Shown here: one piece after another, positions 421 through 15,770 of the stretch
Layout: every line of letters starts with the position of its first letter
Position numbering within the stretch: position 1 is the first letter of the stretch
Source of the DNA: Candidatus Poseidoniaceae archaeon
Lineage (GTDB): Archaea > Thermoplasmatota > Poseidoniia > Poseidoniales > Poseidoniaceae
Length of the DNA stretch: 15,770 bases
Direction of reading: 5' to 3'
NCBI GenBank assembly: GCA_022425185.1
Contig: JAKMFY010000050.1
Location: 1-15,770, forward strand
Translations under genes and position numbers: made by a program
Notes under the pieces: model-generated
What the model saw: the letters and a program-made list of their open reading frames with translations, nothing else
The model's database searches: none
Told to the model about the DNA's origin: nothing

Positions 421-1401
421 TCACTTAATTCGAAGTGTATTCTCACGATCGTTCCACATTTTGATCCAATCATTGAGATTTGAGTCAAGCCCTGGTGGTT
501 GAATTCGACACCCGCAAGCGTTCGCATGCCCCCCACCATGTGGGTCAAATGCTGTTGCGAGTTTGGATAAATCGTATCTATCTTGACCACCTTTGATGAA
601 CGAATTTGCATAGAAACTCGCTGACAAAGGAGGACGGTCTGGCCTGGACAAGTCTCCATCGCTGTAGCCATGTACTACACAACAAGCATCTGCCTTATCG
701 CCAACATGGGCTGTGATAAGATATCCATTTGAGCGTATTCCCGAGTCATCAAGACGGCATATCGCTAACCTATCGATAATTTCTGTTTTTTCTTGAACGA
801 TGTTAACTGCATCAATACGTTGCACTCGTGCTGCCTTCATGCGTTCAGAAACGAGTTCATTGTTTGTGATGTCAACTAATTCTTTACATGTTGTAAACAG
901 TTGTAAGAGGTGCTGCATGTAGGCATCATCATTCGAAGACAACGTTCGGGAAAGCTGTAAAACCGGACCGTCTTGGAGGAAATCATCACGAGATATGCCG
1001 CCAGAATCCAAGGCATCAACCATCGGCATAATTTCTTCAAGATGCGTGAGATCAAATTGGTCTTTGAATAATTCATAGGCTAAACGAGCGGCAGAAGGCG
1101 TATGCTCCCAATGAACAACTCCACCTTGTTTCGTGAATTCTTTTTCTTCAACTTCGTTTGGCTTGTTTGTCAAATGGTGATCAAGGTACCATCCACTTGC
1201 TGGATGGAATGGTAAGTCCACTGTCACCGTCTTTGAATCAATAACATCATCCAACATCCCCGCCCGAAGAATGGCTGCATGTCCGAAAACAACTTCTGCC
1301 TCAGGATAGGCTTTGAGCAGAACTGCTGCTGCGCACATCCCATCCAAATCGGAATCCGCTACAATTCGATTGATTTCTGGGAACGTTTCGGCACCAGTCA
1401 T
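421..1401 (-). CDS. DHH/DHHA1 family phosphoesterase
   Basis: A 326-residue protein of the DHH phosphoesterase superfamily (RecJ, NrnA and archaeal relatives), which uses two metal ions to cleave phosphodiester or phosphoanhydride bonds. Visible motifs are the N-terminal Asp cluster VADSDLDG (Asp16, 18, 20), the DHH triad at 74-76 inside YLDHHL, and the C-terminal DHHA1 signature GGGHANACG at about 289-297. No transmembrane segment or nucleic-acid-binding extension is seen, so a soluble nanoRNase or cyclic-dinucleotide/pAp phosphatase is the general expectation. The exact substrate cannot be told. The start is ATG at 1401 rather than the in-frame ATG at 1497, because AAAGGA lies 6 nt upstream of 1401 and the longer form would overlap the divergent Nudix gene with a 32-residue tail unlike the family. 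Confidence 0.88.
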   Translation of the reverse strand: MTGAETFPEINRIVADSDLDGMCAAAVLLKAYPEAEVVFGHAAILRAGMLDDVIDSKTVTVDLPFHPASGWYLDHHLTNKPNEVEEKEFTKQGGVVHWEHTPSAARLAYELFKDQFDLTHLEEIMPMVDALDSGGISRDDFLQDGPVLQLSRTLSSNDDAYMQHLLQLFTTCKELVDITNNELVSERMKAARVQRIDAVNIVQEKTEIIDRLAICRLDDSGIRSNGYLITAHVGDKADACCVVHGYSDGDLSRPDRPPLSASFYANSFIKGGQDRYDLSKLATAFDPHGGGHANACGCRIQPPGLDSNLNDWIKMWNDRENTLRIK

Positions 1402-1407
1402 GCCAAT

Positions 1408-1413
1408 TCCTTT
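1408..1413 (-). promoter_or_regulatory. Ribosome binding site deciding the DHH start
   Basis: AAAGGA read on the minus strand, 6 nt before the ATG at 1401. It supports the short start over the in-frame ATG at 1497. Confidence 0.6.
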
Positions 1414-1472
1414 TGTACGCGGGTTTTGAACGTATTGGAGTCTAACGGCGAAAAGGCCAAAGCATTGGATTC

Positions 1473-1477
1473 GAGGG
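1473..1477 (+). promoter_or_regulatory. Ribosome binding site of the Nudix gene
   Basis: GAGGG 7 nt upstream of the ATG at 1485, in the short region between the divergent DHH and Nudix genes. Confidence 0.55.
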
Positions 1478-1484
1478 ACAAAAT

Positions 1485-1886
1485 ATGGAGACTTCATGCG
1501 GCGTAGTTTTGGTCAACTTTGATGCTGTTCTCCTCCTACAATATCCGCAAGGGCATTGGGATTTACCAAAAGGTCATGTTGAGATGACTGACGTTGATCA
1601 CCTCGCAACAGTTCGAAGAGAATTGGGTGAGGAAACAGGGATCACTGAAATTACATTCGTTGAAAACTTTGTAGAACGCACAGCCTATACCTACAGACAC
1701 AAAGGAAAACGAATGCACAAGGAAGTCTTCTGGTTTTTGGCCGAAACCGAGCAACTCGATGTGAAAATTTCACACGAGCATCGTGGCCATCTATGGCTCG
1801 ATTGGGAGCAAGCTCTTGCCCAACTCACTCATGATGAGACAACATCTGTTGTTCGAAAAGCTTGGGAACATATGAAGAAGCAGTAA
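1485..1886 (+). CDS. Nudix hydrolase, diadenosine tetraphosphatase (Ap4A) type
   Basis: A 133-residue single-domain Nudix hydrolase. The segment WDLPKGHVE at about 25-33, followed by RRELGEETGI, is characteristic of the NUDT2/Ap4A hydrolase branch, which splits Ap4A asymmetrically to ATP and AMP and so removes stress-linked dinucleotides. The Nudix box runs from Gly30 to Ile53. It is one residue longer than the canonical GX5EX7REUXEEXGU, with the extra residue in the loop between GHVE and the helix; the REL-EE-GI metal-binding core is intact. The helix at the C-terminus (HDETTSVVRKAWEHMKK) is also typical. GAGGG 7 nt upstream supports the start. It diverges from the DHH phosphoesterase, and its TAA ends exactly one base before the stop of the convergent adenosyltransferase gene. 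Confidence 0.92.
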   Translation: METSCGVVLVNFDAVLLLQYPQGHWDLPKGHVEMTDVDHLATVRRELGEETGITEITFVENFVERTAYTYRHKGKRMHKEVFWFLAETEQLDVKISHEHRGHLWLDWEQALAQLTHDETTSVVRKAWEHMKKQ

Positions 1887-2585
1887 TCAGATTTGATCGA
1901 AATCTGAATCGTTCTCATTCTGCCTATGAATCGAACCTGCAATTCCATCTTCTTTTCCGCGTTTTCCAAGAGGGAGCCACAACATTTCCTCTTCCCCCAA
2001 GACTGCCGTAATCCAACGGCTGAGCACAAAGAGCCAATCTGAAAGCCGATTAACATAGGTCAATACAAGAGGTCGAACTGAATCTTCGCCTTCGATATCT
2101 CTTAGGCGGACAATGTTCCGTTCTAACCGCCGAGTTACTGTTCTGGCATGATGGAGCATTGCTTGAGGAGGTCCGCCTGCAGGCAGGATGAACGAGGTGA
2201 GCGGTTCGGTCTGACTTAGCCATGCATCCATATCAGAAACTAATACATCGGATTGATCATCGTTGATGAGAACCATATAATCTGGGAGGTTTTCTGGTGG
2301 GCAAGCAAGTTCAGCCCCAAGATCGAAAAGCTCATGTTGGACTCTTGAAAGGGCAGAGTCACAAATGAAATGGACGCGCCCAGCGCCCTTTCTATCTCCC
2401 CCATCTCTATGCCCCATCGGAACACGTGCACACTCCATCCTTGCAACACCAAGGAGTGAATTCAATTCGTCACAATCCCCAACAACAGAAAATCGTGCAT
2501 CGGATTTAGAACGGCGTGACCCGTCGACTAAGGAAGATTCTCCAGTATCTCCGCCACCTGTATGAACTCGATCTATCCGAACCAT
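1887..2585 (-). CDS. PduO-type cob(I)alamin adenosyltransferase
   Basis: A 232-residue ATP:cob(I)alamin adenosyltransferase of the PduO/MMAB family, which transfers the adenosyl group of ATP to reduced cobalamin to make coenzyme B12 for enzymes such as methylmalonyl-CoA mutase. Visible landmarks in family order are the ATP-binding N-terminus HTGGGDTGESSL (8-19), VGDCDELNSLLG (35-46), FILPAGGPP (132-140), the helix HHARTVTRRLER (145-156) and YVNRLSDWLFVLSR (177-190) with its Asn-Arg-Leu-Ser-Asp core. A glycine-rich insertion at about 55-70 and a charged tail after residue 205 are extra relative to typical members. AGAGGCG 5 nt upstream supports the ATG. The gene is last in the leftward cluster, 25 bp after the DUF2203 gene. 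Its presence implies that the cell uses or salvages B12. Confidence 0.93.
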   Translation of the reverse strand: MVRIDRVHTGGGDTGESSLVDGSRRSKSDARFSVVGDCDELNSLLGVARMECARVPMGHRDGGDRKGAGRVHFICDSALSRVQHELFDLGAELACPPENLPDYMVLINDDQSDVLVSDMDAWLSQTEPLTSFILPAGGPPQAMLHHARTVTRRLERNIVRLRDIEGEDSVRPLVLTYVNRLSDWLFVLSRWITAVLGEEEMLWLPLGKRGKEDGIAGSIHRQNENDSDFDQI

Positions 2586-3502: not shown

Positions 3503-4270
3503 CTATTCTTCTTCAATCATTGGAAGAATTGTAGCGGCATCAGAATCCAGGGCGATGAGCGCATCATGGATGGCCTCTACATATGGTCGAGCAACTGCTC
3601 GTTCCCCACCTTCGCGAAGAAGTAATTCCTCCCACTCTGATGCCGCAGATGTGTCACCAAGGAAAAGGTGAATCCGATGTAATGCAAGATAGGCCATTGG
3701 ATTAAGATGTTCTTCATCAGCATCCCATCCTCGCTCGAAACAAGAAATCGCACCTTGTGGCCCAGTTAATCGCCCTTGCATGAGAGCAATCATACCTGCT
3801 TGTGACCAAGCAAGAGGTAACTTTCCAATGAGCAAGCCTCTGAAGATTAACCAGGTTTCCCCTCCCCCAATAACGACCAATGTAAGGAAAGCAGCCCACT
3901 GCTCCAATGTGGAAAGATCGCTCCATGTTTCAACCATAAGTCCAACAACACCCACACAGAATAACAATCCGGCATATGGAGCGACGAGAACATCCCGTTG
4001 AGTTCGTGCGAGATGGTATACACCTGCAACCAACCCAAAACCTCCCAGAGCACATAGCATAACAAAATGGGCATTGGAACCCATTGGCCTTGGAGCTGCC
4101 TGGCCGATTAAAATCAATACTGCAAGCATTATCAAAAGCCAACCAAAGCGAGAACTTGGTTGTGGAAAGGGCTGGTTCTTACTGTTGTAAAGCAATGCGA
4201 ATCCAATAAAGAATTCAAAACATATGAGCGCCCATCGTAGACTGGTTTCATCAGTCAATGGGAGCGCCAT
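3503..4270 (-). CDS. Five-helix membrane protein with TPR-like C-terminal tail, unknown
   Basis: A 255-residue protein. Hydrophobic helices are visible at about 11-28, 43-58, 67-87, 94-113 and 126-146. The remaining 110 residues are soluble. The part from about 153 to 220 has the look of two helix-turn-helix repeats of TPR type: Trp155-Ser-Gln-Ala-Gly, then AISCFERGWD, then AYLALHRIHLFLGDTSAA. TPR-like repeats usually mediate protein contacts, so this could be a membrane docking protein; that is inference. No named family is recognised. GGAG lies a few bases before the ATG. It starts 36 bp after the RlmH stop, so the two are probably co-transcribed. Confidence 0.75.
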   Translation of the reverse strand: MALPLTDETSLRWALICFEFFIGFALLYNSKNQPFPQPSSRFGWLLIMLAVLILIGQAAPRPMGSNAHFVMLCALGGFGLVAGVYHLARTQRDVLVAPYAGLLFCVGVVGLMVETWSDLSTLEQWAAFLTLVVIGGGETWLIFRGLLIGKLPLAWSQAGMIALMQGRLTGPQGAISCFERGWDADEEHLNPMAYLALHRIHLFLGDTSAASEWEELLLREGGERAVARPYVEAIHDALIALDSDAATILPMIEEE

Positions 4271-5864: not shown

Positions 5865-6731
5865 TTGGATATCATCTCTGTGAATGAATTTGAGTTCAAG
5901 CCCATTTCACAGGGTAGCTCATTCCTAGGAAGTGACAAAGGGGGCTGGATCTATGCAAGTCAAAGGCCTCGGTATGAGGTTCAACTCCCTGATTATTACA
6001 TTCTTGAGAACCCTATCACAAGGAGACAAGTCGCTCGTTTACTTGGAGAAAGCGAGGAAGTCGAAGATTCTGCTGAACCTATGATCGGCCTTATTGGAAG
6101 TGAGATAGAAGCTATACGCAAACAGATTGAAGAACAATTCGACTTCGATTCATTACCTGGTAACTGGGAGGTTCGCCCACCGTCTTTCCCAGAATGGCGT
6201 CATGCTCGTGATGAAATCAATCTCGACTCTGGAGTTGTCGAAATATTAGGCGATGCTGCTGCTGCAAATCATCGTGGAGCTATGATGGATGGGCGAGTCC
6301 GTCCAATTGAAACCACTGGCCCGTTGCAGTATCACCGATTAGCAGTAGAAATGCACCCAAAGCGGAAAGGTGTTTTTGCAACCTCAAACATCCCCGTTGA
6401 TCGGTCACTTACGAATACAGTTGTACGATTTGTCATATCTCCTGTACGCGAGTCTCCGGCAAGAAGGGTCCCTAAAACTGCAGATTCTTGGGGTAATTTC
6501 CGAACGGAACTATTGTGGACAACATTGCTTGGAATTATTCCGTCTTTCCTCATACCTATTCTTCGTGGTTTCGACACGTATGCCCTCGATGGTTGGCCGA
6601 ATCTGCTGTTCGGAGGACTTGTTGCAGGATTTGTGACTGGCGCAATATGGAGGCCAAGAAGGCCAACAATTTCCTATGAGGAAGGAGTCATTCAAGAATC
6701 CGGAGACTCATGGGCTAATGTTTCCCAATAA
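5865..6731 (+). CDS. SUMF1/formylglycine-generating-enzyme-like protein with C-terminal membrane anchor, no cysteines
   Basis: A 288-residue protein if translation starts at TTG 5865; GTG 5880 is an alternative. It resembles a divergent FGE-sulfatase (SUMF1) fold. GSSFLGSDKGG then RPRYEVQLPDYYILENPITRRQV (split, about 17-27 and 34-56) matches the family's opening F-MGS...E-P-H-V-L--F-I---PVT. WEVRPPSFPEWRHAR (101-115) matches the R-LPTE-EWE-AAR motif, and NTVVRFVISP (184-193) matches the closing GFR strand. There is no cysteine anywhere, so the copper-binding catalytic pair of true formylglycine-generating enzymes is absent and a binding or structural role is more likely. Two hydrophobic segments follow at about 216-234 and 245-262, then a short polar tail. 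No signal peptide is present, so the domain probably faces the cytoplasm. Its last 40 bp overlap the end of the convergent maeB-type gene. Confidence 0.72.
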   Translation: MDIISVNEFEFKPISQGSSFLGSDKGGWIYASQRPRYEVQLPDYYILENPITRRQVARLLGESEEVEDSAEPMIGLIGSEIEAIRKQIEEQFDFDSLPGNWEVRPPSFPEWRHARDEINLDSGVVEILGDAAAANHRGAMMDGRVRPIETTGPLQYHRLAVEMHPKRKGVFATSNIPVDRSLTNTVVRFVISPVRESPARRVPKTADSWGNFRTELLWTTLLGIIPSFLIPILRGFDTYALDGWPNLLFGGLVAGFVTGAIWRPRRPTISYEEGVIQESGDSWANVSQ

Positions 6732-9010
6732 GAATCCTTACGCATAGCATCAGCAACGCAGATTGCAGTCATGTTAACAATATGACGAACACCGTCTTGG
6801 CGAGCAACAAGTTGGACGGGATTTTTCATTCCTTCAAGAATTGGCCCAGTCATTTCAGCGTCAGCAAGTTGTTCAAGCATCTTGTAAACGATATTTGCTG
6901 AAGCAAGGTTTGGGAGAACCAAAATGTTCGCTGGGCCTGTGAATTCCATGAATGGATATTCTTGCTGAACCGTTGGATCAAGAGCAGTATCTGCCTGCAT
7001 TGGCCCATCGATTACAAGTGTGGGGTCGAGAATTCTGGCCATTTCAACTGCCTCTTCAATACGGTCACTTCGCTGAGCACGGGTGCTTCCAAAGTTAGAG
7101 AATGAAAGCATAGCAACCTTTGGACTTACACCAAATCTTCGGGCGACTTTTGCTGTTTGAACAGCAATTTCTGCAAGTGTGCGGCTATCAGGATAGACAT
7201 TCACTGTTGCATCTGCAAGGAAGAGAAGACGTCCTTTGATGGTCACCATGTAGCAACCAATCAGGCAATGAGCATCATCAGCAGGGCCGATTGTTTCCAA
7301 AACTGGACGTAGAACATCACTGTAATTTCGGCTGACACCGCCAACAAACCCATCAGCATCCCCAAACTCAACCATCTGACTTGCAAAGTATGGCCGGCTC
7401 TTGAGAAGACGAGCTGCATCGACTCTTGTAACACCCTTGCGCTGTCTTCGATCGAACAACTTTTCCGCGTAGATTCCTTTTCTTCGTTCGTCCGTACGAG
7501 GGTCATAAACCTCGTATTCGAAATCAAAATGCATTTCCTCCATCATTCTGGCGATTCTGTCTTTAGGACCGAGTAAAATTGGCTTACATATTTTCTGTTC
7601 GACCAGTTGAGCAGCAGCGCGAATAACCTTCTCATTGTCTCCTTCTGGGAAAACGATTCTCTTATTTCTTCGACGAACTTGGTTGATGACACTGCGCATG
7701 ATTGAATATGTCATTCCTAGTCTCGCCTCGAGGGATTCCCTGTAACTTTGGAGCGAGAATTCTTCTTTGGTTACCGAAGTAATTCCTTCATCAACTGCAG
7801 CCTGTGCTACAGCAGAGGCCTCCCAAATCAACACTCGGCGATCGAATGGTTTTGGGATGATGTATTCTGGCCCATATTCCATCGTTGCACCATCGTAAGC
7901 AGCTGAGATATAATCAGGAACGGGCTCTTTTGCTAATGCTGCAAGCGACCTCGTTGCTGCCATTTTCATATTCTGAGTAATATCTCTTGCACGTACGTCA
8001 AGAGCGCCTCGGAAAATGTAAGGAAAACCTAAGACATTGTTCACTTGGTTGGCGTAATCTGAACGACCTGTGGCAATGATAGCATCTGTGCGAACTTCAA
8101 GAATTTCTTCTGGAAGAATCTCTGGGGTTGGATTCGCAAGGGCGAATACAATTGGATTGGCTGCCATAGAAGCAATCATTTCTTTTGTAACAAGTCCGCC
8201 TTTAGAAAGACCGAGAAGTACGTCAGCATCCTTCATGGCTTCAGCCAGAGGACCATCTGGACAGTCGACTGCAAATTTCGCCTTGTATTCATTGAGTTCT
8301 CCTTTGTCAAGACGACTGGTTGTGATGATTCCTTGTGAATCTATCATCTTGATATTCGAACGCTTCACACCAAGAGCAACATAATGCTCTGCACACGCAA
8401 ATGCAGATGCTCCAGCTCCAAGGACAACGACATTGATTGTACCCAATTCCTTTTCTTGTAATTCTACTGCATTCAATAATGCAGCACCTGAAATGATTGC
8501 TGTACCATGTTGATCATCATGCATGACTGGAATGTCTGTTGCTTCCGCGATTCTACGTTCAATTTCAAAACATTCTGGCGCCTTGATATCTTCAAGATTA
8601 ATGCCTCCAAAGGTTTTGGAAATGTTGACAACTGTTGAAATAAATTCTTCCGGATCTGTCGTATCAACCTCGATATCAAACACATCAATGTCGGCAAATG
8701 TCTTCAAAAGAAGGCCTTTTCCTTCCATGACGGGCTTACTGGCCAAAGCACCAATATTTCCAAGACCTAATACAGCGGTTCCGTTTGAAATAACAGCAAC
8801 TAAATTACCTTTTGAAGTATAGCGATACGCATCCTCTGGCCTCTCTGCGATTTCGAGACAGGGGTAAGCGACTCCAGGAGAATAAGCAAGCGAGAGTTCG
8901 TGTGCTGTTGAGTGTGGTTTTGTTGGCACCACCTTGATTTTTCCACGAGGTTCTTTTTCGTGATACTCGAGTGCTTCACGACGGAGAATTTCGTCTCTTT
9001 TTTTCTTCAT
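6692..9010 (-). CDS. maeB: NADP-dependent malic enzyme fused to phosphotransacetylase-like domain (MaeB type)
   Basis: A 772-residue two-domain enzyme, close in length to E. coli MaeB (759). It decarboxylates malate to pyruvate with reduction of NADP, feeding biosynthetic NADPH. Malic-enzyme landmarks are LAYSPGVAYPCLEI (41-54), GNLVAVISNGTAVLGLGNIG (68-87), EDIKAPECFEIE (140-151), the metal-site HDDQHGTAI (164-172), the Rossmann loop VVLGAGASAFA (195-205), LANPTPEI (291-298) and GRSDYANQVNNVL (315-327). From about 450 a phosphotransacetylase-type domain follows: RIVFPEGDNEKVIRAA (451-466), DGFVGG (553-558) and FLADATVNVYPDS (597-609). In characterised MaeB enzymes this domain is not catalytic and senses acetyl-CoA. 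AGGGG 8 nt upstream supports the ATG. It diverges from pyruvate kinase. The strong likeness to proteobacterial MaeB suggests ancient transfer from bacteria if the host is archaeal. Confidence 0.97.
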   Translation of the reverse strand: MKKKRDEILRREALEYHEKEPRGKIKVVPTKPHSTAHELSLAYSPGVAYPCLEIAERPEDAYRYTSKGNLVAVISNGTAVLGLGNIGALASKPVMEGKGLLLKTFADIDVFDIEVDTTDPEEFISTVVNISKTFGGINLEDIKAPECFEIERRIAEATDIPVMHDDQHGTAIISGAALLNAVELQEKELGTINVVVLGAGASAFACAEHYVALGVKRSNIKMIDSQGIITTSRLDKGELNEYKAKFAVDCPDGPLAEAMKDADVLLGLSKGGLVTKEMIASMAANPIVFALANPTPEILPEEILEVRTDAIIATGRSDYANQVNNVLGFPYIFRGALDVRARDITQNMKMAATRSLAALAKEPVPDYISAAYDGATMEYGPEYIIPKPFDRRVLIWEASAVAQAAVDEGITSVTKEEFSLQSYRESLEARLGMTYSIMRSVINQVRRRNKRIVFPEGDNEKVIRAAAQLVEQKICKPILLGPKDRIARMMEEMHFDFEYEVYDPRTDERRKGIYAEKLFDRRQRKGVTRVDAARLLKSRPYFASQMVEFGDADGFVGGVSRNYSDVLRPVLETIGPADDAHCLIGCYMVTIKGRLLFLADATVNVYPDSRTLAEIAVQTAKVARRFGVSPKVAMLSFSNFGSTRAQRSDRIEEAVEMARILDPTLVIDGPMQADTALDPTVQQEYPFMEFTGPANILVLPNLASANIVYKMLEQLADAEMTGPILEGMKNPVQLVARQDGVRHIVNMTAICVADAMRKDSYWETLAHESPDS

Positions 9011-9163: not shown

Positions 9164-10633
9164 ATGCGTTCGAGAATCATCGCAACAATCGGCCCAGCAA
9201 GTAACGGCGTTGAGACGTTAAAACAGATGATTGAAGGGGGTATGGATATTGCTCGACTCAATTATTCTCATGGTGATTTCAAGGGCAAAGAGCAAACAAT
9301 ACAGAACATTCGTTCAGCGGAATCAGAGGCTGGGAAGTATGTCGGACTTCTAGCCGATCTTCCCGGGCCTAAACTACGATTGGGAACCTTCGAAGGCGAA
9401 GTTGTCTTGGAAAGAGGAGAACTTGTCGACCTCCATTGTGGGGTCTCAGATGGCTTGCCTACACAAGCAAATACAATTCTTGGCGAACCTGTGAAGACAT
9501 TACCCGTTGAGTGGGATGGTTTATCCAAGGATCTACGCGTGGGTGATCCAGTTCTTCTGTCAGATGGATTGATTCGATTAGAGGTTCTATCTGCTCCTGA
9601 ACATATCGGAGAAGTTGTTCGGTGCCGTGTTGAGGACGGTGGCATCTTAACAGAGAGAAAAGGAATAAATGTCCCAAGAACACTGGTTAAACTCCCTGCT
9701 GTCGGGCCTCATGATCTTGATTGTCTAGAACATGCCCTCTCTCAAAATGTTGATTTTGTTGCTGTGTCTTATGTCCGTAGTGCTAGTGATCTTACACCAG
9801 CACGTGAGCGTATCAAGAAGGCTGGTGTGCACACCTGGATTGTTGCTAAGATAGAACATCCTGCGGCTCTCGAACAGCTGAATGAAATCGTCGAAGCTGC
9901 TGATGTTGTTATGGTTGCGAGAGGAGACTTGGGTGTAGAAATACCCCTTGAAGAAGTTCCTGCTGCTCAGGAGAGAATCGTTTCTGCATGCCTCGAAAGA
10001 GGAACGCCTGTTGTTGTTGCAACCCAGATGCTCGAAAGTATGGTCAATCATGCACGACCTACTCGGGCTGAGGTAACGGATGTCGCTACAGCCATTCGAC
10101 AACACGTTAGCGCCGTGATGCTCTCTGGAGAAACCGCAGGAGGGCAGCATCCAGTGAAAGCGGTTGAAACAATGGCCCGCATTGCTGAAACTGTTGATGC
10201 TTCAACAGCAGATTTACCCGAACCTCCCGCCCTCGCCGCGTATGTTTCCACCCGTGTCATTGCTGGTGCAGCCGTCGATATCGCAAGAGAGACAAACGCA
10301 AATCATCTGATAGTTGCAACCGAACATGGGAATGCCGCTCGTTTGATGGCTGCATATCGGCCACGAATTCCGATATATGCAATGACGAATCGAATTCGTG
10401 CTGCTCGTAGAACAACTATCTTGCCGGGTGTTGAAGGATTGCTTGTCGAAGAAAAGACGAGGGCAAGATCGACTGTTGCAGAGGCTGTTCGATTATTATA
10501 TGAACAGAAAAAAATCAAGCCAAATGCGAAGATTGTTGCTATTTCAGGTTCACCTCAGGCAATCAGTGGTAGGACATCTACAATTCGATTGTTGCAAGTA
10601 CAAAAAGACGGCGAACTCTCTGATTTAGAGTGA
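9164..10633 (+). CDS. pyk: Pyruvate kinase
   Basis: A 489-residue pyruvate kinase, full length for the family, catalysing PEP + ADP to pyruvate + ATP in glycolysis. The N-terminus RSRIIATIGPAS starts the barrel. RLNYSHG (31-37) supplies substrate and nucleotide ligands, and KGINVPRTLVKLPAV (166-180) borders the mobile B domain. The catalytic lysine signature IVAKIEHP places Lys229, with metal ligands Glu231 and Asp255 (VARGDLG). VATQMLESM (285-293) and VMLSGETAGGQHP (318-330) complete the active site. The C domain (about 355-480) is present, with HLIVATEHGNAARL. At the position of rabbit muscle Glu117 the sequence has lysine (ADLPGPKLRLG, Lys70), the residue found in potassium-independent pyruvate kinases. 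The signature reads EHP where most enzymes have ENQ. It diverges from the malic enzyme gene and lies 59 bp before the giant propeller gene. Confidence 0.97.
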   Translation: MRSRIIATIGPASNGVETLKQMIEGGMDIARLNYSHGDFKGKEQTIQNIRSAESEAGKYVGLLADLPGPKLRLGTFEGEVVLERGELVDLHCGVSDGLPTQANTILGEPVKTLPVEWDGLSKDLRVGDPVLLSDGLIRLEVLSAPEHIGEVVRCRVEDGGILTERKGINVPRTLVKLPAVGPHDLDCLEHALSQNVDFVAVSYVRSASDLTPARERIKKAGVHTWIVAKIEHPAALEQLNEIVEAADVVMVARGDLGVEIPLEEVPAAQERIVSACLERGTPVVVATQMLESMVNHARPTRAEVTDVATAIRQHVSAVMLSGETAGGQHPVKAVETMARIAETVDASTADLPEPPALAAYVSTRVIAGAAVDIARETNANHLIVATEHGNAARLMAAYRPRIPIYAMTNRIRAARRTTILPGVEGLLVEEKTRARSTVAEAVRLLYEQKKIKPNAKIVAISGSPQAISGRTSTIRLLQVQKDGELSDLE

Positions 10634-10692: not shown

Positions 10693-10806
10693 ATGAGCGA
10701 AGCCCGTATACATTCATCTCGCTCGCGACGAGCAATGTTTCTGACTGCGTTGATGTTACTATCATCGTGGTCTCTGGCACTTGCCGCTGTTCCGATGGCA
10801 TCTGCT
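10693..10806 (+). other. Signal peptide of the giant propeller protein
   Basis: It encodes residues 1-38: a polar and basic N-region with RSRR, a hydrophobic stretch beginning MFLTALMLLSSW, and an AxA-type end (MASA before His-Glu). This predicts Sec export and signal peptidase I cleavage, with no lipobox cysteine. Confidence 0.8.
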
Positions 10807-13800
10807 CATGAAACTCAAGATGTCATTTCATGGCCGCTTTCTGGCAGTAATGATACCGGTTGGGTTCAACTCAATGCCACGATTGGTACAGATCCAATCC
10901 TCAGCAGTCAAGCGACCGCAGATTGGATACTTGAGTTCGCTCCTGGTGCAGAAATTTCAAACGCTTCACTGCAAATCCATGTCAATGGATCTGACGGGTT
11001 AATGATCGATCAACCGCTTCTCGTAGCCAACGACATAGGCGTCAACCTTTTCGATTGGAGAGGACAAGGTGTTCTCGGCGCCGCTGATTCCTTTGATGGA
11101 GCAAATCCATACACAGATCGGCTTTCGCCAAATAGTGCAACAGGTGCAGGATGGACATTACCGTCAGATGCGACAATCACTGAACTTGCCTTTGAAGCCC
11201 TTGCACCAGTCGATCCTGTAACTTCGTTCACTCCGTTAACGATTCCGGTTACATCATATGCTCAGCATCCCGTTGATGGGCAACTGTACCTTGCAACCGG
11301 TAGTACAATCCTCGTCTTCGATGCTGCGAATGATCCTGCGATTATCGACTTTTATGATTTTGTTGAATTAGAGCCTGATTCTTCATTTGGAGCGATTGCT
11401 GATATTGCCATTGGACCAAATGGTAACCTTCACGTGGCTTTTTCAGAACCTTCAGAGTTTAGAATGATTTCACAAACAGACGGAACAGTAGGAGCTGGTT
11501 TACCATCATTCCCTGCAGGGGACATAGGAGCATTTGAAGTTCTAACCTCCGGCATTTACGCAGCAAACACAGGAGGGGACTTGTATTCATTCGATTCAAC
11601 CTCTTCTGGTTGGAGTCTGCTCCTTTCATCTTCCACATCCAGTGTCGTCAATGATTTGCACGAAGAAAACAATATCCTCTATATCGCCACGGACAATGGT
11701 GTAAACCGGTATGACCTCAACACCAATCAAGCACTGTCTTCTTGGAATTCTGGAAACGTTCTCCACAGTGATACGATTTCAGAAATAACAACTGCTGGAA
11801 ATCAGCTTCTCTTTTCCTCTCCTGATAACGGACTCGCTCGATTCAACTGGAACTCAGGCTTTTGGCTTGCAACATGGAATGACGGAAATTGGCTCGACTC
11901 TAATACAGTATCAGGCGCCCAAGCTTACCAAGATACACTTCACATTATGAGTGGAAGCAAACTCCATCGCTATGATCTCTCCACCGGTGTTTTCGGTTCT
12001 TCAATCGATTTGAATCAGATGAATCTAACACAAAATTCAGTCGGCATGATGATGCCGTGGTCACCCGGTGGCGCTCGAGCTCCTTCTTCAATGATGCATG
12101 CCATGCTCGATGGCAGCAGGCTCGTACTCATCGATGCTACAATGCAAAGCACAGTTCAACGAGAAATTGTCATTGCAAGTGGTCCATCTGGACCTGAAAT
12201 GAGTGATGCAGTCGAACATAATGGAATTCTCTATGTTGCAGGATTTACCTCTGAACAACTTGATAGATTCGATATTGCAAACTCTCTGTGGTTAACTTCT
12301 ATTGATTTAGGAGACAAAATCACTGCTCTTGGTCGAGCAGGAGATACCATCCTTGCTGGAACTGTTGATGATGGAGTCTTCCTCATCGAAAACGGCACTA
12401 TTCGAGCAAATGTTCCTCCTAGTTCTTCGACAGATGCTTCCGACAATTACGTTCTCGATATTGCGGCTGCAGGCGATTGCGGAGATCCGATTGGATGCAA
12501 CATCATCGTCACTCAACTCAACGGAGTGTACAGAATTGATGCCGATGCAACGGCCATAGGCTCTGCAACACTCCTAAGGTCTGGAGTAACAACTGGGCAA
12601 CTTGCAATCTATGCAGACGTATGCTACATCACAACACAAGATGGATTGCTAAGATACGATATCAGTAACGATACGTTCCTTGCCCCTTGGGGATCGACCG
12701 GCGTCAACGGTGTTGACAATGCCCCTGTGGCAGTCATTGGAGACATTGTTCACATGGGCTTGTCTGGATACGGTGTTGCTCGAAAGAATATTCTAACTGG
12801 AGAAATATTGACTCCCCTTAATTCTGATACGACGAACATGCAAACAAACACGATCTATGCCCTCCAAGCAAGCGGAAACGATTTGTGGATTGGAACCAAT
12901 ATTGCTGGCTACATCTGGGATGGGTTCTCAGTTAGTGAAACAACCATCGGACCGCGCAGTGATTGGACAAAACGGCCTTCGCAACATTTCGATTACGTGC
13001 TTGATGGAAATGCAATGTGGTCTGGTACAAACATAGGCGTATGCAAGTACGACCTCTCAGGAAACATTGCTGACTGCCTCAATGTCTACGATGGTATGCC
13101 AAATTGGGCTACATACACAGTTGGCGTCAACAGTACAACCGTGTTTGGAGGAACCTTCTCTGGCGTTGGACTCATCGAAAAGTCATCCTTCAGCGTTGTT
13201 GGAGAATGGGATGCTGGGTCACAAACCGATAATGCAATCGTAGAAATCATCGACGATATTGCTTACATCGGACTCAATGGAGTGGGTATAGCTCGATGGG
13301 ACATAGCAAACAGCCAATGGCTTACAACGTGGACCACAAGCAACGTCCTAGACAATGGAAATCAGTTTGTCACAGGCATGATTGAAGATATTCGACCAGG
13401 CCTTATCTGGATCGGCGGAGAAGACGGTTTTCAATTGATAAATACAACAACAGGTGCTGAAGTCTATGACATCGAGGTTTCAAACAGCCTTTACGTGGGT
13501 AACGGTGATCCATTTGATTTGACAATGTACGGATACACGATGTATTACCATCAAGGAGTTTCAAGCGATAGTGTCTACGGAATTGATGTAGGGAACTTCA
13601 CTGCGATAACACCGCTTGATGCTGGCCAAGAAGTCAGCGAAAATGGCGGAGATGTTGTCGGCATGACCATTGTTGGAGACACGCTTCTTGCAAGCGTTGT
13701 ATCTGGACAATGGTGGAATCAAGAAGGGAGCGGAGGCATCGCTCAGTACGACTTAGTATCTCAAACGTGGAATACGTCTGTTTTACCCGAGGGTTCAGTT

Positions 13801-15770
13801 GACCGGGTTACAGCATTCAATTCATCGACTGGACATACATGGATTTCTTGGGGAGAAATCGGCCTTGAAGTCTACAGCCCAAGCGGGACAAAACTAGGCT
13901 CATGGGATACACTTTCTTTCCCAGTTCGTGAGATTATTGAATATGATGGCTTGATTCTGTTTGCCACTGAAGACGGTGTTGAACGATTCAATGAGTCCTC
14001 TTTCCAATGGGAAACGGCATGGACGCCCGGTAACGGTTTGCCGAATGCAATGGGGGACTGGATTGGTGAACTTTGGACTGATGGAAGTACCTTGATGGTC
14101 GGTTCAGCAAGCTTCGCTGGCTGGGGCGGATTCCAACGAGGTATAATTGGTCAGTTGGATGCATCTGGCACCTGGACCACCTATACCACTGGTCAAAACG
14201 GAATTCCGAATGGCTATCCAATCTCGATGGAAGAATGTGGGTCCTACCTCTATGTCGGACTCTTCAATAATAATGGAGGTGTAACATACATTGACCTTGC
14301 AAACACAACTGCTGCAGGCTCGTTTACTACCTCCGTTCTCAAGAGCGGGCGAGTAGCTGCAGTTGCTTGTGATCCATCGGATACACTGTACGTCGGTTAC
14401 GATGATGATAACTTACCAATTTCGAAATACGATACCACCCAATCTACATGGATTGCGGAAATAACATCTAACACAAATGGAATTCCTACAGACCCTGTAT
14501 GGCTTGATGCATTCAGTTATGCAGATGGTAAATTGCTCATTGGTTACGATGACAATGGAGGTTTTGCAGCCATTTCAACACTTGGTCCAATTACTGGGCA
14601 AGCAAGTGTCCAATCGGTGGGAACTGCGGTTACATCGATCAAATACAGCGGGAATGAATGGCTCATTGGTCAAGCAGGAGGGGCAAGTGGATACTCTCAT
14701 GTTGACATACTCAGTTCCACGGGATTGAATACCGAATTTGAGTTACCAGCCTTGGTTAGCGGTAATATCGAAGCAATGGTCAGCGATGGTTCTCGTATTT
14801 GGGTCTCGACCTACTCAGTCACTGTAAACGGAAATAATCCTGGTGCGGGTTCTGGCGGTATATTGCAAGGAACATTCAACTCCAGTGGAGGTATTGACTG
14901 GAATGAGGGTTGGTCCTTATCATTCAATAATCAGGTAAATTCCATGCTCATGGAAGGAAATATGATCTACATCACCACCCAAAATGGAGGGATGTACACG
15001 CTTGATACTGCTACAAACGTATTGCAAAAGAAGAATGGTGCCGTCCACGACAGCCAAGATGGAATTGCATTGCATCAATCTGGGGGTGTCTCGACACTCT
15101 TCATCGGATTGCTTGGCACATCATCGACTGCTGCTGGAGTACAAATATTCGACATCGCAACTCAACAATTCACAAGTGGCCAGCTCCTATCTGGACTCCC
15201 TTCGGATAACATCCAAGGATTCGCCTTCTCGAATTCACACATCTACATTGCAACCCAAAACGGAATTGGTCGCTGGAATCTAACCACCAATGACTGGGAC
15301 AATCCGTTGACAACATCGGATGGCCTACCAACCTCAAACATTGAAGATATTCGGTACATCTCGAACACCCTTTACATCGCAAGCCCAAGTGGTCTAACAC
15401 AGTACATCCCAAACACAGGTGCAGTAAACACAATGACAACTGCTGATGGCTTGTTAGGGAATTCTGTTTGGTCTATTGAAACCTACACAACCAGTCAATC
15501 AGGTACATGGTTAATCCTCGGACATGATGGAGCAGGAACTGAACGGCCAGGCCTTACTGTCGTTGATCTCTCAAATGTCTCTGTTGCTGCCACTCATCGA
15601 TTTGATCAACTCCCTTCCAATTTCATCACCTCAGTCGCTTCGGATTATGGTGGCCTTCACATCGCAACTGATGTTGGGCCATTGGTTCATTACAACGGAC
15701 TGACTGGAGAATTCGAAGATGGACTTGCAAGTTTTGAACTCGGATCGGGTTGGCCAATCTATCGCATGGA
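10693..15770 (+). CDS. Giant secreted beta-propeller repeat protein, 3' end beyond the window
   Basis: The frame is open from ATG 10693 to the window edge: 1692 codons visible with no stop. Residues 1-38 form a signal peptide: basic SRSRR, a hydrophobic core (about 15-34) and a predicted cut after ASA38. Residues 40-180 look like a beta-sandwich (WILEFAPGAEISNASLQIHV). From about residue 185 the protein is a run of more than 30 degenerate units of about 35-60 residues. Each has the core hydrophobic-Y/W-I/V-G/A-T...N/D-G-hydrophobic-x-R/x-hydrophobic-D, for example ILYIATDNGVNRYDL, LWIGTNIAGYIWDG and IYIATQNGIGRWNL. Late units add a GLPSDNI/GLPTSNIEDI linker, as in the Reg_prop propellers of hybrid two-component sensors. 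There are many Asn-x-Ser/Thr sequons and a few paired cysteines. The likely role is a surface or extracellular protein for adhesion or polymer binding. Neither an anchor nor an enzymatic domain is in view. It is separated from pyruvate kinase by 59 bp. Confidence 0.93.
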   Translation, partial: MSEARIHSSRSRRAMFLTALMLLSSWSLALAAVPMASAHETQDVISWPLSGSNDTGWVQLNATIGTDPILSSQATADWILEFAPGAEISNASLQIHVNGSDGLMIDQPLLVANDIGVNLFDWRGQGVLGAADSFDGANPYTDRLSPNSATGAGWTLPSDATITELAFEALAPVDPVTSFTPLTIPVTSYAQHPVDGQLYLATGSTILVFDAANDPAIIDFYDFVELEPDSSFGAIADIAIGPNGNLHVAFSEPSEFRMISQTDGTVGAGLPSFPAGDIGAFEVLTSGIYAANTGGDLYSFDSTSSGWSLLLSSSTSSVVNDLHEENNILYIATDNGVNRYDLNTNQALSSWNSGNVLHSDTISEITTAGNQLLFSSPDNGLARFNWNSGFWLATWNDGNWLDSNTVSGAQAYQDTLHIMSGSKLHRYDLSTGVFGSSIDLNQMNLTQNSVGMMMPWSPGGARAPSSMMHAMLDGSRLVLIDATMQSTVQREIVIASGPSGPEMSDAVEHNGILYVAGFTSEQLDRFDIANSLWLTSIDLGDKITALGRAGDTILAGTVDDGVFLIENGTIRANVPPSSSTDASDNYVLDIAAAGDCGDPIGCNIIVTQLNGVYRIDADATAIGSATLLRSGVTTGQLAIYADVCYITTQDGLLRYDISNDTFLAPWGSTGVNGVDNAPVAVIGDIVHMGLSGYGVARKNILTGEILTPLNSDTTNMQTNTIYALQASGNDLWIGTNIAGYIWDGFSVSETTIGPRSDWTKRPSQHFDYVLDGNAMWSGTNIGVCKYDLSGNIADCLNVYDGMPNWATYTVGVNSTTVFGGTFSGVGLIEKSSFSVVGEWDAGSQTDNAIVEIIDDIAYIGLNGVGIARWDIANSQWLTTWTTSNVLDNGNQFVTGMIEDIRPGLIWIGGEDGFQLINTTTGAEVYDIEVSNSLYVGNGDPFDLTMYGYTMYYHQGVSSDSVYGIDVGNFTAITPLDAGQEVSENGGDVVGMTIVGDTLLASVVSGQWWNQEGSGGIAQYDLVSQTWNTSVLPEGSVDRVTAFNSSTGHTWISWGEIGLEVYSPSGTKLGSWDTLSFPVREIIEYDGLILFATEDGVERFNESSFQWETAWTPGNGLPNAMGDWIGELWTDGSTLMVGSASFAGWGGFQRGIIGQLDASGTWTTYTTGQNGIPNGYPISMEECGSYLYVGLFNNNGGVTYIDLANTTAAGSFTTSVLKSGRVAAVACDPSDTLYVGYDDDNLPISKYDTTQSTWIAEITSNTNGIPTDPVWLDAFSYADGKLLIGYDDNGGFAAISTLGPITGQASVQSVGTAVTSIKYSGNEWLIGQAGGASGYSHVDILSSTGLNTEFELPALVSGNIEAMVSDGSRIWVSTYSVTVNGNNPGAGSGGILQGTFNSSGGIDWNEGWSLSFNNQVNSMLMEGNMIYITTQNGGMYTLDTATNVLQKKNGAVHDSQDGIALHQSGGVSTLFIGLLGTSSTAAGVQIFDIATQQFTSGQLLSGLPSDNIQGFAFSNSHIYIATQNGIGRWNLTTNDWDNPLTTSDGLPTSNIEDIRYISNTLYIASPSGLTQYIPNTGAVNTMTTADGLLGNSVWSIETYTTSQSGTWLILGHDGAGTERPGLTVVDLSNVSVAATHRFDQLPSNFITSVASDYGGLHIATDVGPLVHYNGLTGEFEDGLASFELGSGWPIYRM
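11245..15770 (+). repeat. Degenerate protein-level blade repeats of the giant gene
   Basis: I count about 33 blade-like units by eye between residue 185 and the window edge. Spacing is irregular (roughly 30-60 codons) and DNA identity between units is low, so this is an old, diverged repeat array rather than a recent tandem duplication. With seven or eight blades per propeller it would form four or five propellers in the visible part alone. The most regular units are the last ones (15196-15480), where the GLP-S/T-NI linker recurs. Confidence 0.75.

What the first reader, a model, noticed from the sequence alone, without database searches (positions are those of the whole stretch)
10693..15770. 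Giant signal-peptide-bearing protein made of more than 30 propeller blades
One frame runs at least 1692 codons with a signal peptide, an N-terminal beta-sandwich-like region, then about 33 blade-like repeats related to Reg_prop/ligand-sensing propellers. Reg_prop arrays are best known as sensor domains of hybrid two-component systems, with about 14 blades in two propellers. Here the array is far longer, and no kinase or membrane helix appears in the visible part. It may be a free or surface-attached multi-propeller protein for adhesion or polysaccharide/protein capture in a planktonic cell.
Basis: partly seen in the sequence, partly recalled or inferred. Interest (0 to 1): 0.7.

Follow-up and report, generated by a model that had tools for sequence, protein, structure and literature searches.

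The report
Giant propeller surface receptor of ocean archaea
The window holds most of a very large surface protein, built from about 35 propeller blades, that nearly all examined members of one major group of ocean archaea carry; it is anchored by one membrane helix and ends inside the cell in an almost unchanging short tail, so it looks like a core receptor or adhesin whose ligand and inner partner are still unknown.

Summary

Relatives supply the missing end: a stalk with FN3-like domains, one membrane helix (163 of 163) and a 75-160-residue tail ending D-x-S-F-[LI]-D-[DE]-[LMI]-L (156 of 163). No kinase follows in three full-length proteins scanned, and HisKA kinases were found in only 2 of 40 genomes of the order. 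So it is neither a free protein nor a two-component sensor.

The gene is in 123 of 124 listed Poseidoniales (Marine Group II) genomes, one only weakly, and in none of 19 listed genomes of another order of the class. It keeps one housekeeping locus. Most likely it is a core surface receptor or adhesin that binds outside ligands and docks a cytosolic partner through its C-terminal peptide; ligand and partner are unknown. It resembles BT4663-type sensor ectodomains but is not a member of that family. Nine literature searches listed no description of it.

The parts
10693..15768 (+). Visible 1692 codons of the giant surface protein (about 2760 aa in relatives); the last 58 residues are on contig G000:C11, bases 1-174
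   Evidence: ORF list; P0001 matches C20 (residues 1-1696) and C11 (2703-2760)
10693..10806 (+). Signal peptide, residues 1-38, probable cleavage after A-S-A
   Evidence: Sequence; hydropathy of relatives, P0001 15-33; cleavage site is my reading
10807..11232 (+). Conserved N-terminal region before the blades, fold unresolved
   Evidence: Conservation; low pLDDT
11248..15720 (+). 33 four-stranded propeller blades (residues 186-1676); 35 in the full protein
   Evidence: DSSP strands of two models grouped by hand; blade profile with controls
11248..12171 (+). Blades 1-7, a seven-bladed ring in model A
13807..14748 (+). Blades 20-26, a seven-bladed ring in model B (from L002)

Best explanation
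A core, order-wide surface receptor or adhesin of Poseidoniales (Marine Group II). Predicted with good support: signal peptide; 35 four-stranded blades, enough for five seven-bladed propellers; a stalk with FN3-like domains; one membrane helix near the C-terminus; a 75-160-residue tail ending in a conserved peptide. Inferred: the chain projects from the cell membrane; the propellers bind one or more extracellular ligands (glycans or glycoproteins are my first guess, by analogy with BT4663); the stalk holds them away from the membrane; the C-terminal peptide docks a cytosolic protein that anchors, clusters or is signalled by the receptor. Ligand and partner are unknown.
For: Present in 60 of 60 genomes searched with the window protein, own included, and in 123 of 124 listed genomes of the two families of the order. 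Fixed locus: malic enzyme upstream, aminotransferase IV and PabB/PabA downstream, each in 42 of 46 loci. Helix in 163 of 163 and strict C-terminal pattern in 156 of 163, while the 30 positions before it have no residue above 0.53 outside f2; this is what a docking peptide would show. Nearest solved proteins are saccharide-sensing ectodomains (4a2l 3.2e-26). Eight cysteines invariant in 50 of 50, as in an exported protein.
Against: No ligand-binding face stands out: loops are no more conserved than strands. Neighbours are metabolic enzymes and give no functional hint. In f2 the strict tail pattern holds in only 10 of 15. Two of 124 listed genomes lack a strong match (G152 none, G080 weak). Binding and partner are untested.
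Confidence: 0.55

Rival explanations
1. Envelope building protein: many copies stand side by side as the main protein coat or spacer of these cells, the tail only anchors or spaces them, and ligand binding is secondary.
For: Order-wide, near single-copy, very large, kept at one locus. [quoted passage not shown] whether this is one of them is unknown.
Against: A conserved cytosolic end is not needed for a coat; propellers of this type are known as ligand-binding ectodomains (PMC5121618, passages). No evidence of abundance or of a lattice.
Confidence: 0.22
2. Sensor without its own kinase: ligand binding changes the ectodomain and the tail passes the signal to a separate cytosolic protein. It overlaps with the best explanation but makes signalling the main task.
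For: Propellers nearest to those of hybrid sensors; conserved C-terminal peptide.
Against: HisKA in only 2 of 40 genomes of the order, while 12 of 14 control genomes have it; no signalling gene among the conserved neighbours.
Confidence: 0.15
3. Ordinary hybrid two-component sensor cut off by the contig end, or an assembly artefact.
For: Reg_prop-like propellers; the gene is broken across contigs here.
Against: Complete relatives end 75-160 residues after the helix and three full-length ones have no kinase hit at E<=1. The same architecture recurs in many assemblies, one of them a single 2.06-Mb contig (L048).
Confidence: 0.02

Closest known systems
Ectodomains of Bacteroides hybrid two-component sensors (BT4663 4a2l/4a2m, BT3049 3v9f, BT4673 3ott)
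   Same: Nearest solved proteins by profile (3.2e-26, 8.3e-19, 1.9e-15 with A1) and among the first by fold; extracytoplasmic seven-bladed propellers followed by an all-beta domain (PMC5121618, passages)
   Different: 35 blades instead of 14; no kinase; near-invariant C-terminal peptide in a short tail; archaeal
[quoted passage not shown]
   Same: Seven-bladed propellers; fold match 1.7e-19; one Pfam model just over its cut-off in the window
   Different: Two propellers only; NCBIfam PorZ 30.6 vs 260 bits; PorZ ends in a secretion-type domain (PMC5121618), this protein in a membrane helix and tail
LRP2/megalin and ROS1 (animal receptors)
   Same: First Foldseek hits (megalin 8jut 4.2e-21; ROS1 9ozi 9.6e-21): several propellers in series on one chain; that both are single-pass receptors is recalled, from no call
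   Different: No LDL-A, EGF or YWTD family hit at E<=1, no kinase; whole-chain TM-scores are low (0.06-0.17), so this is analogy of plan, not shown homology

Membership tests
Reg_prop hybrid two-component sensor | Propeller ectodomain of the BT4663 type | tested here: met
   Profile A1 to 4a2l 3.2e-26; Foldseek 2.8e-20. Pfam Reg_prop itself is below cut-off, 10.9 vs 20.4
Reg_prop hybrid two-component sensor | About 14 blades in two propellers | tested here: not met
   35 blades by hand grouping of model strands
Reg_prop hybrid two-component sensor | Histidine kinase and response regulator domains after the membrane helix | tested here: not met
   75-160 residues after the helix in 163 sequences; no such Pfam hit at E<=1 in P0001, P0030, P0048
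Reg_prop hybrid two-component sensor | Y_Y_Y domain between propellers and membrane | tested here: inconclusive
   No Pfam Y_Y_Y hit at E<=1, but no fold comparison of that part alone
PorZ (type IX secretion) | NCBIfam T9SS_PorZ equivalog score | tested here: not met
   30.6 bits, cut-off 260; no hit in P0001 or P0030
LRP/LDL receptor family | YWTD propellers with LDL-A and EGF modules | tested here: not met
   No such Pfam family at E<=1 in the window, P0001, P0030, P0048
LRP/LDL receptor family | Single membrane helix with a short tail that carries sorting motifs | tested here: inconclusive
   Helix and conserved tail end present; no function of the motif tested
S-layer or coat protein | Forms a regular two-dimensional layer on the cell | not testable with these tools
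   Needs imaging or proteomics

The most novel reading that the evidence does not exclude
An archaeal transmembrane receptor of LRP- or integrin-like plan: a giant propeller array outside, one helix, and a short C-terminal peptide read by a dedicated cytosolic adaptor that clusters or anchors the receptor, or even drives uptake of bound polymers, as a core trait of the most abundant planktonic archaea of surface waters.
Probability: 0.3. Interest if true: 0.85.

Novelty: new variant of a known kind. Interest (0 to 1): 0.6.

Why it matters
Marine Group II archaea are called the most abundant planktonic archaea of ocean surface waters and lack cultured members (PMC6461757, start of abstract). 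One surface protein kept by nearly every genome searched in the order, at one locus, and not found in the other order of the class that was sampled, is a direct handle on how these cells meet particles, polymers, neighbours or viruses. The near-invariant C-terminal peptide turns the question of what it does inside the cell into a pull-down experiment.

Tried and rejected
Hybrid sensor: rejected (no kinase on the chain; HisKA in 2 of 40 genomes). Free secreted protein: rejected for the family (helix in 163 of 163). Tail as a mimic of the FtsZ C-terminal peptide: the FtsZ-like frames of G033, G002 and G046 end differently. Tail shared with other surface proteins: in 5 genomes a 140-residue tail query found, at E<=0.001, only this gene and its second copy; it did not find the family's own copy in G046 (f2), so the test is blind to diverged tails. 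A functional operon: the neighbours are metabolic enzymes, so I read the co-location as old synteny. Ligand face from loop conservation: no signal. N-glycosylation sites: more than 2 SD above shuffles in 2 of 8 proteins only. Matches in 16 other genomes of the phylum are short FN3 or propeller stretches; seven such loci read carry other surface-type proteins. PMC4478702 is not held.

Register of the propellers is unresolved. Model A closes blades 1-7 and model B blades 20-26 (read from the aligned ranges), which does not fit five rings in plain series. Rings 1-7, 13-19, 20-26, 27-33 and a split ring of 8-12 plus 34-35 would fit, and PorZ does complete one propeller from both chain ends (PMC5121618, passages); but slice edges may also explain it.

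Rows dropped: seven loci with frame breaks or runs of X, duplicate loci, frames under 1000 aa or with X, and rows covering under 85% of the slice (64 and 66 of 74 kept); P0016 (partial), L126 (cut by its contig) and the window itself from the tail counts. Blades 6, 7, 18 and 23 of model A and blade 35 were left out of the loop table. The 163 sequences are redundant; 119 are database clusters whose taxon was not checked. One search listed 120 of 201 proteins, and one search kept the best 80 of 91. Structure searches show only the best 50 rows.

Full report
What is there. The frame starts at ATG 10693, 59 bases after the pyruvate kinase gene, and runs 1692 codons to the end of the window, which is the whole contig G000:C20. 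The genome is a partial assembly (1.67 Mb, 301 contigs, 76% complete). The nearest named loci are Candidatus Poseidoniaceae or marine Euryarchaeota assemblies, so this is a Marine Group II archaeon. That f1 and f2 are MGIIa and MGIIb, and f3 Marine Group III, is inference.

The full protein. P0001 is 90% identical over the visible part and 2760 aa long. In G000 its residues 1-1696 match the window and 2703-2760 match the first 174 bases of contig C11; the 1006 residues between were not found in the assembly. C11 then carries the aminotransferase IV and PabB/PabA genes that follow the giant gene elsewhere, so the two contigs very probably flank one gene.

Blades. A profile trained on one blade and iterated over relatives found 30 blades (E<5) in P0001 between 185 and 1723 and none after that. 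In the window it finds 29 at E<5 and 26 at E<0.05; five of 20 shuffles gave 1-2 hits at E<5 and none at E<0.05; the reversed window and three other protein controls gave none. AlphaFold models of window residues 37-1201 (65 sequences, pLDDT 82.2, pTM 0.46) and of the L002 segment equal to P0001 1000-2190 (66 sequences, pLDDT 82.9, pTM 0.49) show repeated four-stranded blades. I grouped the strands by hand into 35 blades, 33 of them in the window; a few lack one assigned strand. Rings at blades 1-7 and 20-26 match solved seven-bladed propellers. The number 35 suggests five rings of seven, but the register of the rest is open (see Tried and rejected).

Beyond the window. P0001 continues with a beta-rich stalk; Pfam sees one FN3 domain in P0048 (29.6 bits, cut-off 25) and none in P0001 or P0030. 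A membrane helix follows (P0001 2634-2652): a 19-residue hydrophobic stretch is present in 163 of 163 complete sequences, with 75-160 residues after it (median 112). The tail is rich in proline and glutamine outside f2 and in aspartate and leucine in f2. Its end is nearly fixed: the strict pattern D-x-S-F-[LI]-D-[DE]-[LMI]-L at the very C-terminus holds in 146 of 148 sequences outside f2 and 10 of 15 in f2; the exceptions are P0055 (one substitution), L002 (two residues added), L118, L119, L129, L133 and L134. The 30 positions before it have no residue above 0.53 outside f2. As a DNA pattern (F-L-D-[DE]-L-L-stop) it gives 28 matches in 25 of 40 genomes against 4 for the control pattern; by place, 19 lie on a contig that also carries a match to this gene, 7 lie in genomes where the gene is in pieces or incomplete, and 2 (G003:C132, G048:C22) are something else. 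Eight cysteines, four pairs by spacing, are invariant in 50 of 50.

Who has it. All 60 genomes searched with the window protein, own included. With a profile of the second half, 123 of 145 genomes of the class match: every listed f1 and f2 genome except G152, with G080 only weak (4.6e-8, lying in a different 1474-aa protein); 19 listed f3 genomes have none, and two more genomes without a match were not listed. In 243 genomes of the phylum 80 match, 64 of them f1 or f2; the other 16 match in short FN3 or propeller stretches only (best 3.5e-32). A second near-full-length copy is listed in G033, G092, G106, G110 and G120. In the tree the second copy of G033 (L135) groups with P0018, P0020 and P0031, and the 15 f2 sequences group together, both with support 1.0 (midpoint-rooted; L126 of f1 falls at the root). 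This fits descent with the order.

Where it sits. In 46 loci compared, the malic enzyme gene lies upstream on the other strand in 42, and the aminotransferase IV and PabB/PabA genes downstream in 42 each; some misses are contig edges or missed frames, and the second copy L135 has other neighbours. In the window the upstream enzyme is a malic enzyme fused to phosphotransacetylase. This is old synteny beside housekeeping genes, unlike what I would expect of a variable adhesin island.

What it is like. By profile the nearest solved proteins are ectodomains of Bacteroides hybrid sensors (4a2l 3.2e-26, 3v9f 8.3e-19, 3ott 1.9e-15), while PorZ is weak (2.6e-4). By fold, megalin, BT4663, BT4673, PorZ and ROS1 lead, with low whole-chain TM-scores. 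PMC5121618 (passages) says that BT4663 binds disaccharides on the entry faces of both propellers and that PorZ completes one propeller with both chain ends. The sensor family is excluded by the missing kinase, and HisKA is found in only 2 of 40 genomes of the order, against 12 of 14 controls.

How it most likely works. Supported by prediction: secretion signal, propellers, one helix, conserved tail end. Inferred: the propeller head binds extracellular material and the C-terminal peptide docks a cytosolic partner. Receptor or adhesin 0.55, coat protein 0.22, kinase-less sensor 0.15.

In print. Nine searches listed no paper that describes this protein; the lists were capped. In three Marine Group II genome papers (PMC6461757, PMC6336850, PMC6864105) and in PMC9723583, seen by term search only, 'propeller' and 'fibronectin' do not occur in the main text. 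For adhesion, PMC6461757 names archaella, thrombospondin and flotillin genes and PMC6336850 flotillin-like proteins (passages). Subscription papers, such as the 2012 Science genome paper that I recall, were not searchable, and supplements were not read.

Noticed in passing
window 6692-9010 (-) and 9164-10633 (+): Malic enzyme fused to a phosphate acetyltransferase domain, and a pyruvate kinase; the pyruvate kinase lies next to the giant gene in only 13 of 46 loci compared, the malic enzyme in 42.
   Followed up: partly
window 1887-2585 (-): Cobalamin adenosyltransferase (Pfam 159 bits).
   Followed up: no
window 421-1494 (-), 3503-4267 (-), 5865-6728 (+): Three conserved neighbouring frames without any Pfam hit at E<=0.001; relatives occur in 19-22 of 46 loci. 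The first looks DHH-phosphoesterase-like to me (recalled, from no call).
   Followed up: no
L135 (G033:C1:1800000-1819000), L136 (G003:C234): A second copy of the giant protein with the variant end IDVSFLD[DE]LL, at another locus with other neighbours.
   Followed up: partly
L170 (G080:C28:1-10000): A different large surface-type protein (1474-aa frame) of the same order with a helix near its C-terminus and an acidic, Trp-rich tail.
   Followed up: no
literature, PMC7618865 and PMC13096325: A Poseidoniales protein (A0A7M3WA57) ranks first in domain novelty in The Encyclopedia of Domains, and Poseidoniales hypothetical proteins are among the most highly expressed transcripts in one ocean dataset (passages); whether either is this family was not tested.
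   Followed up: no
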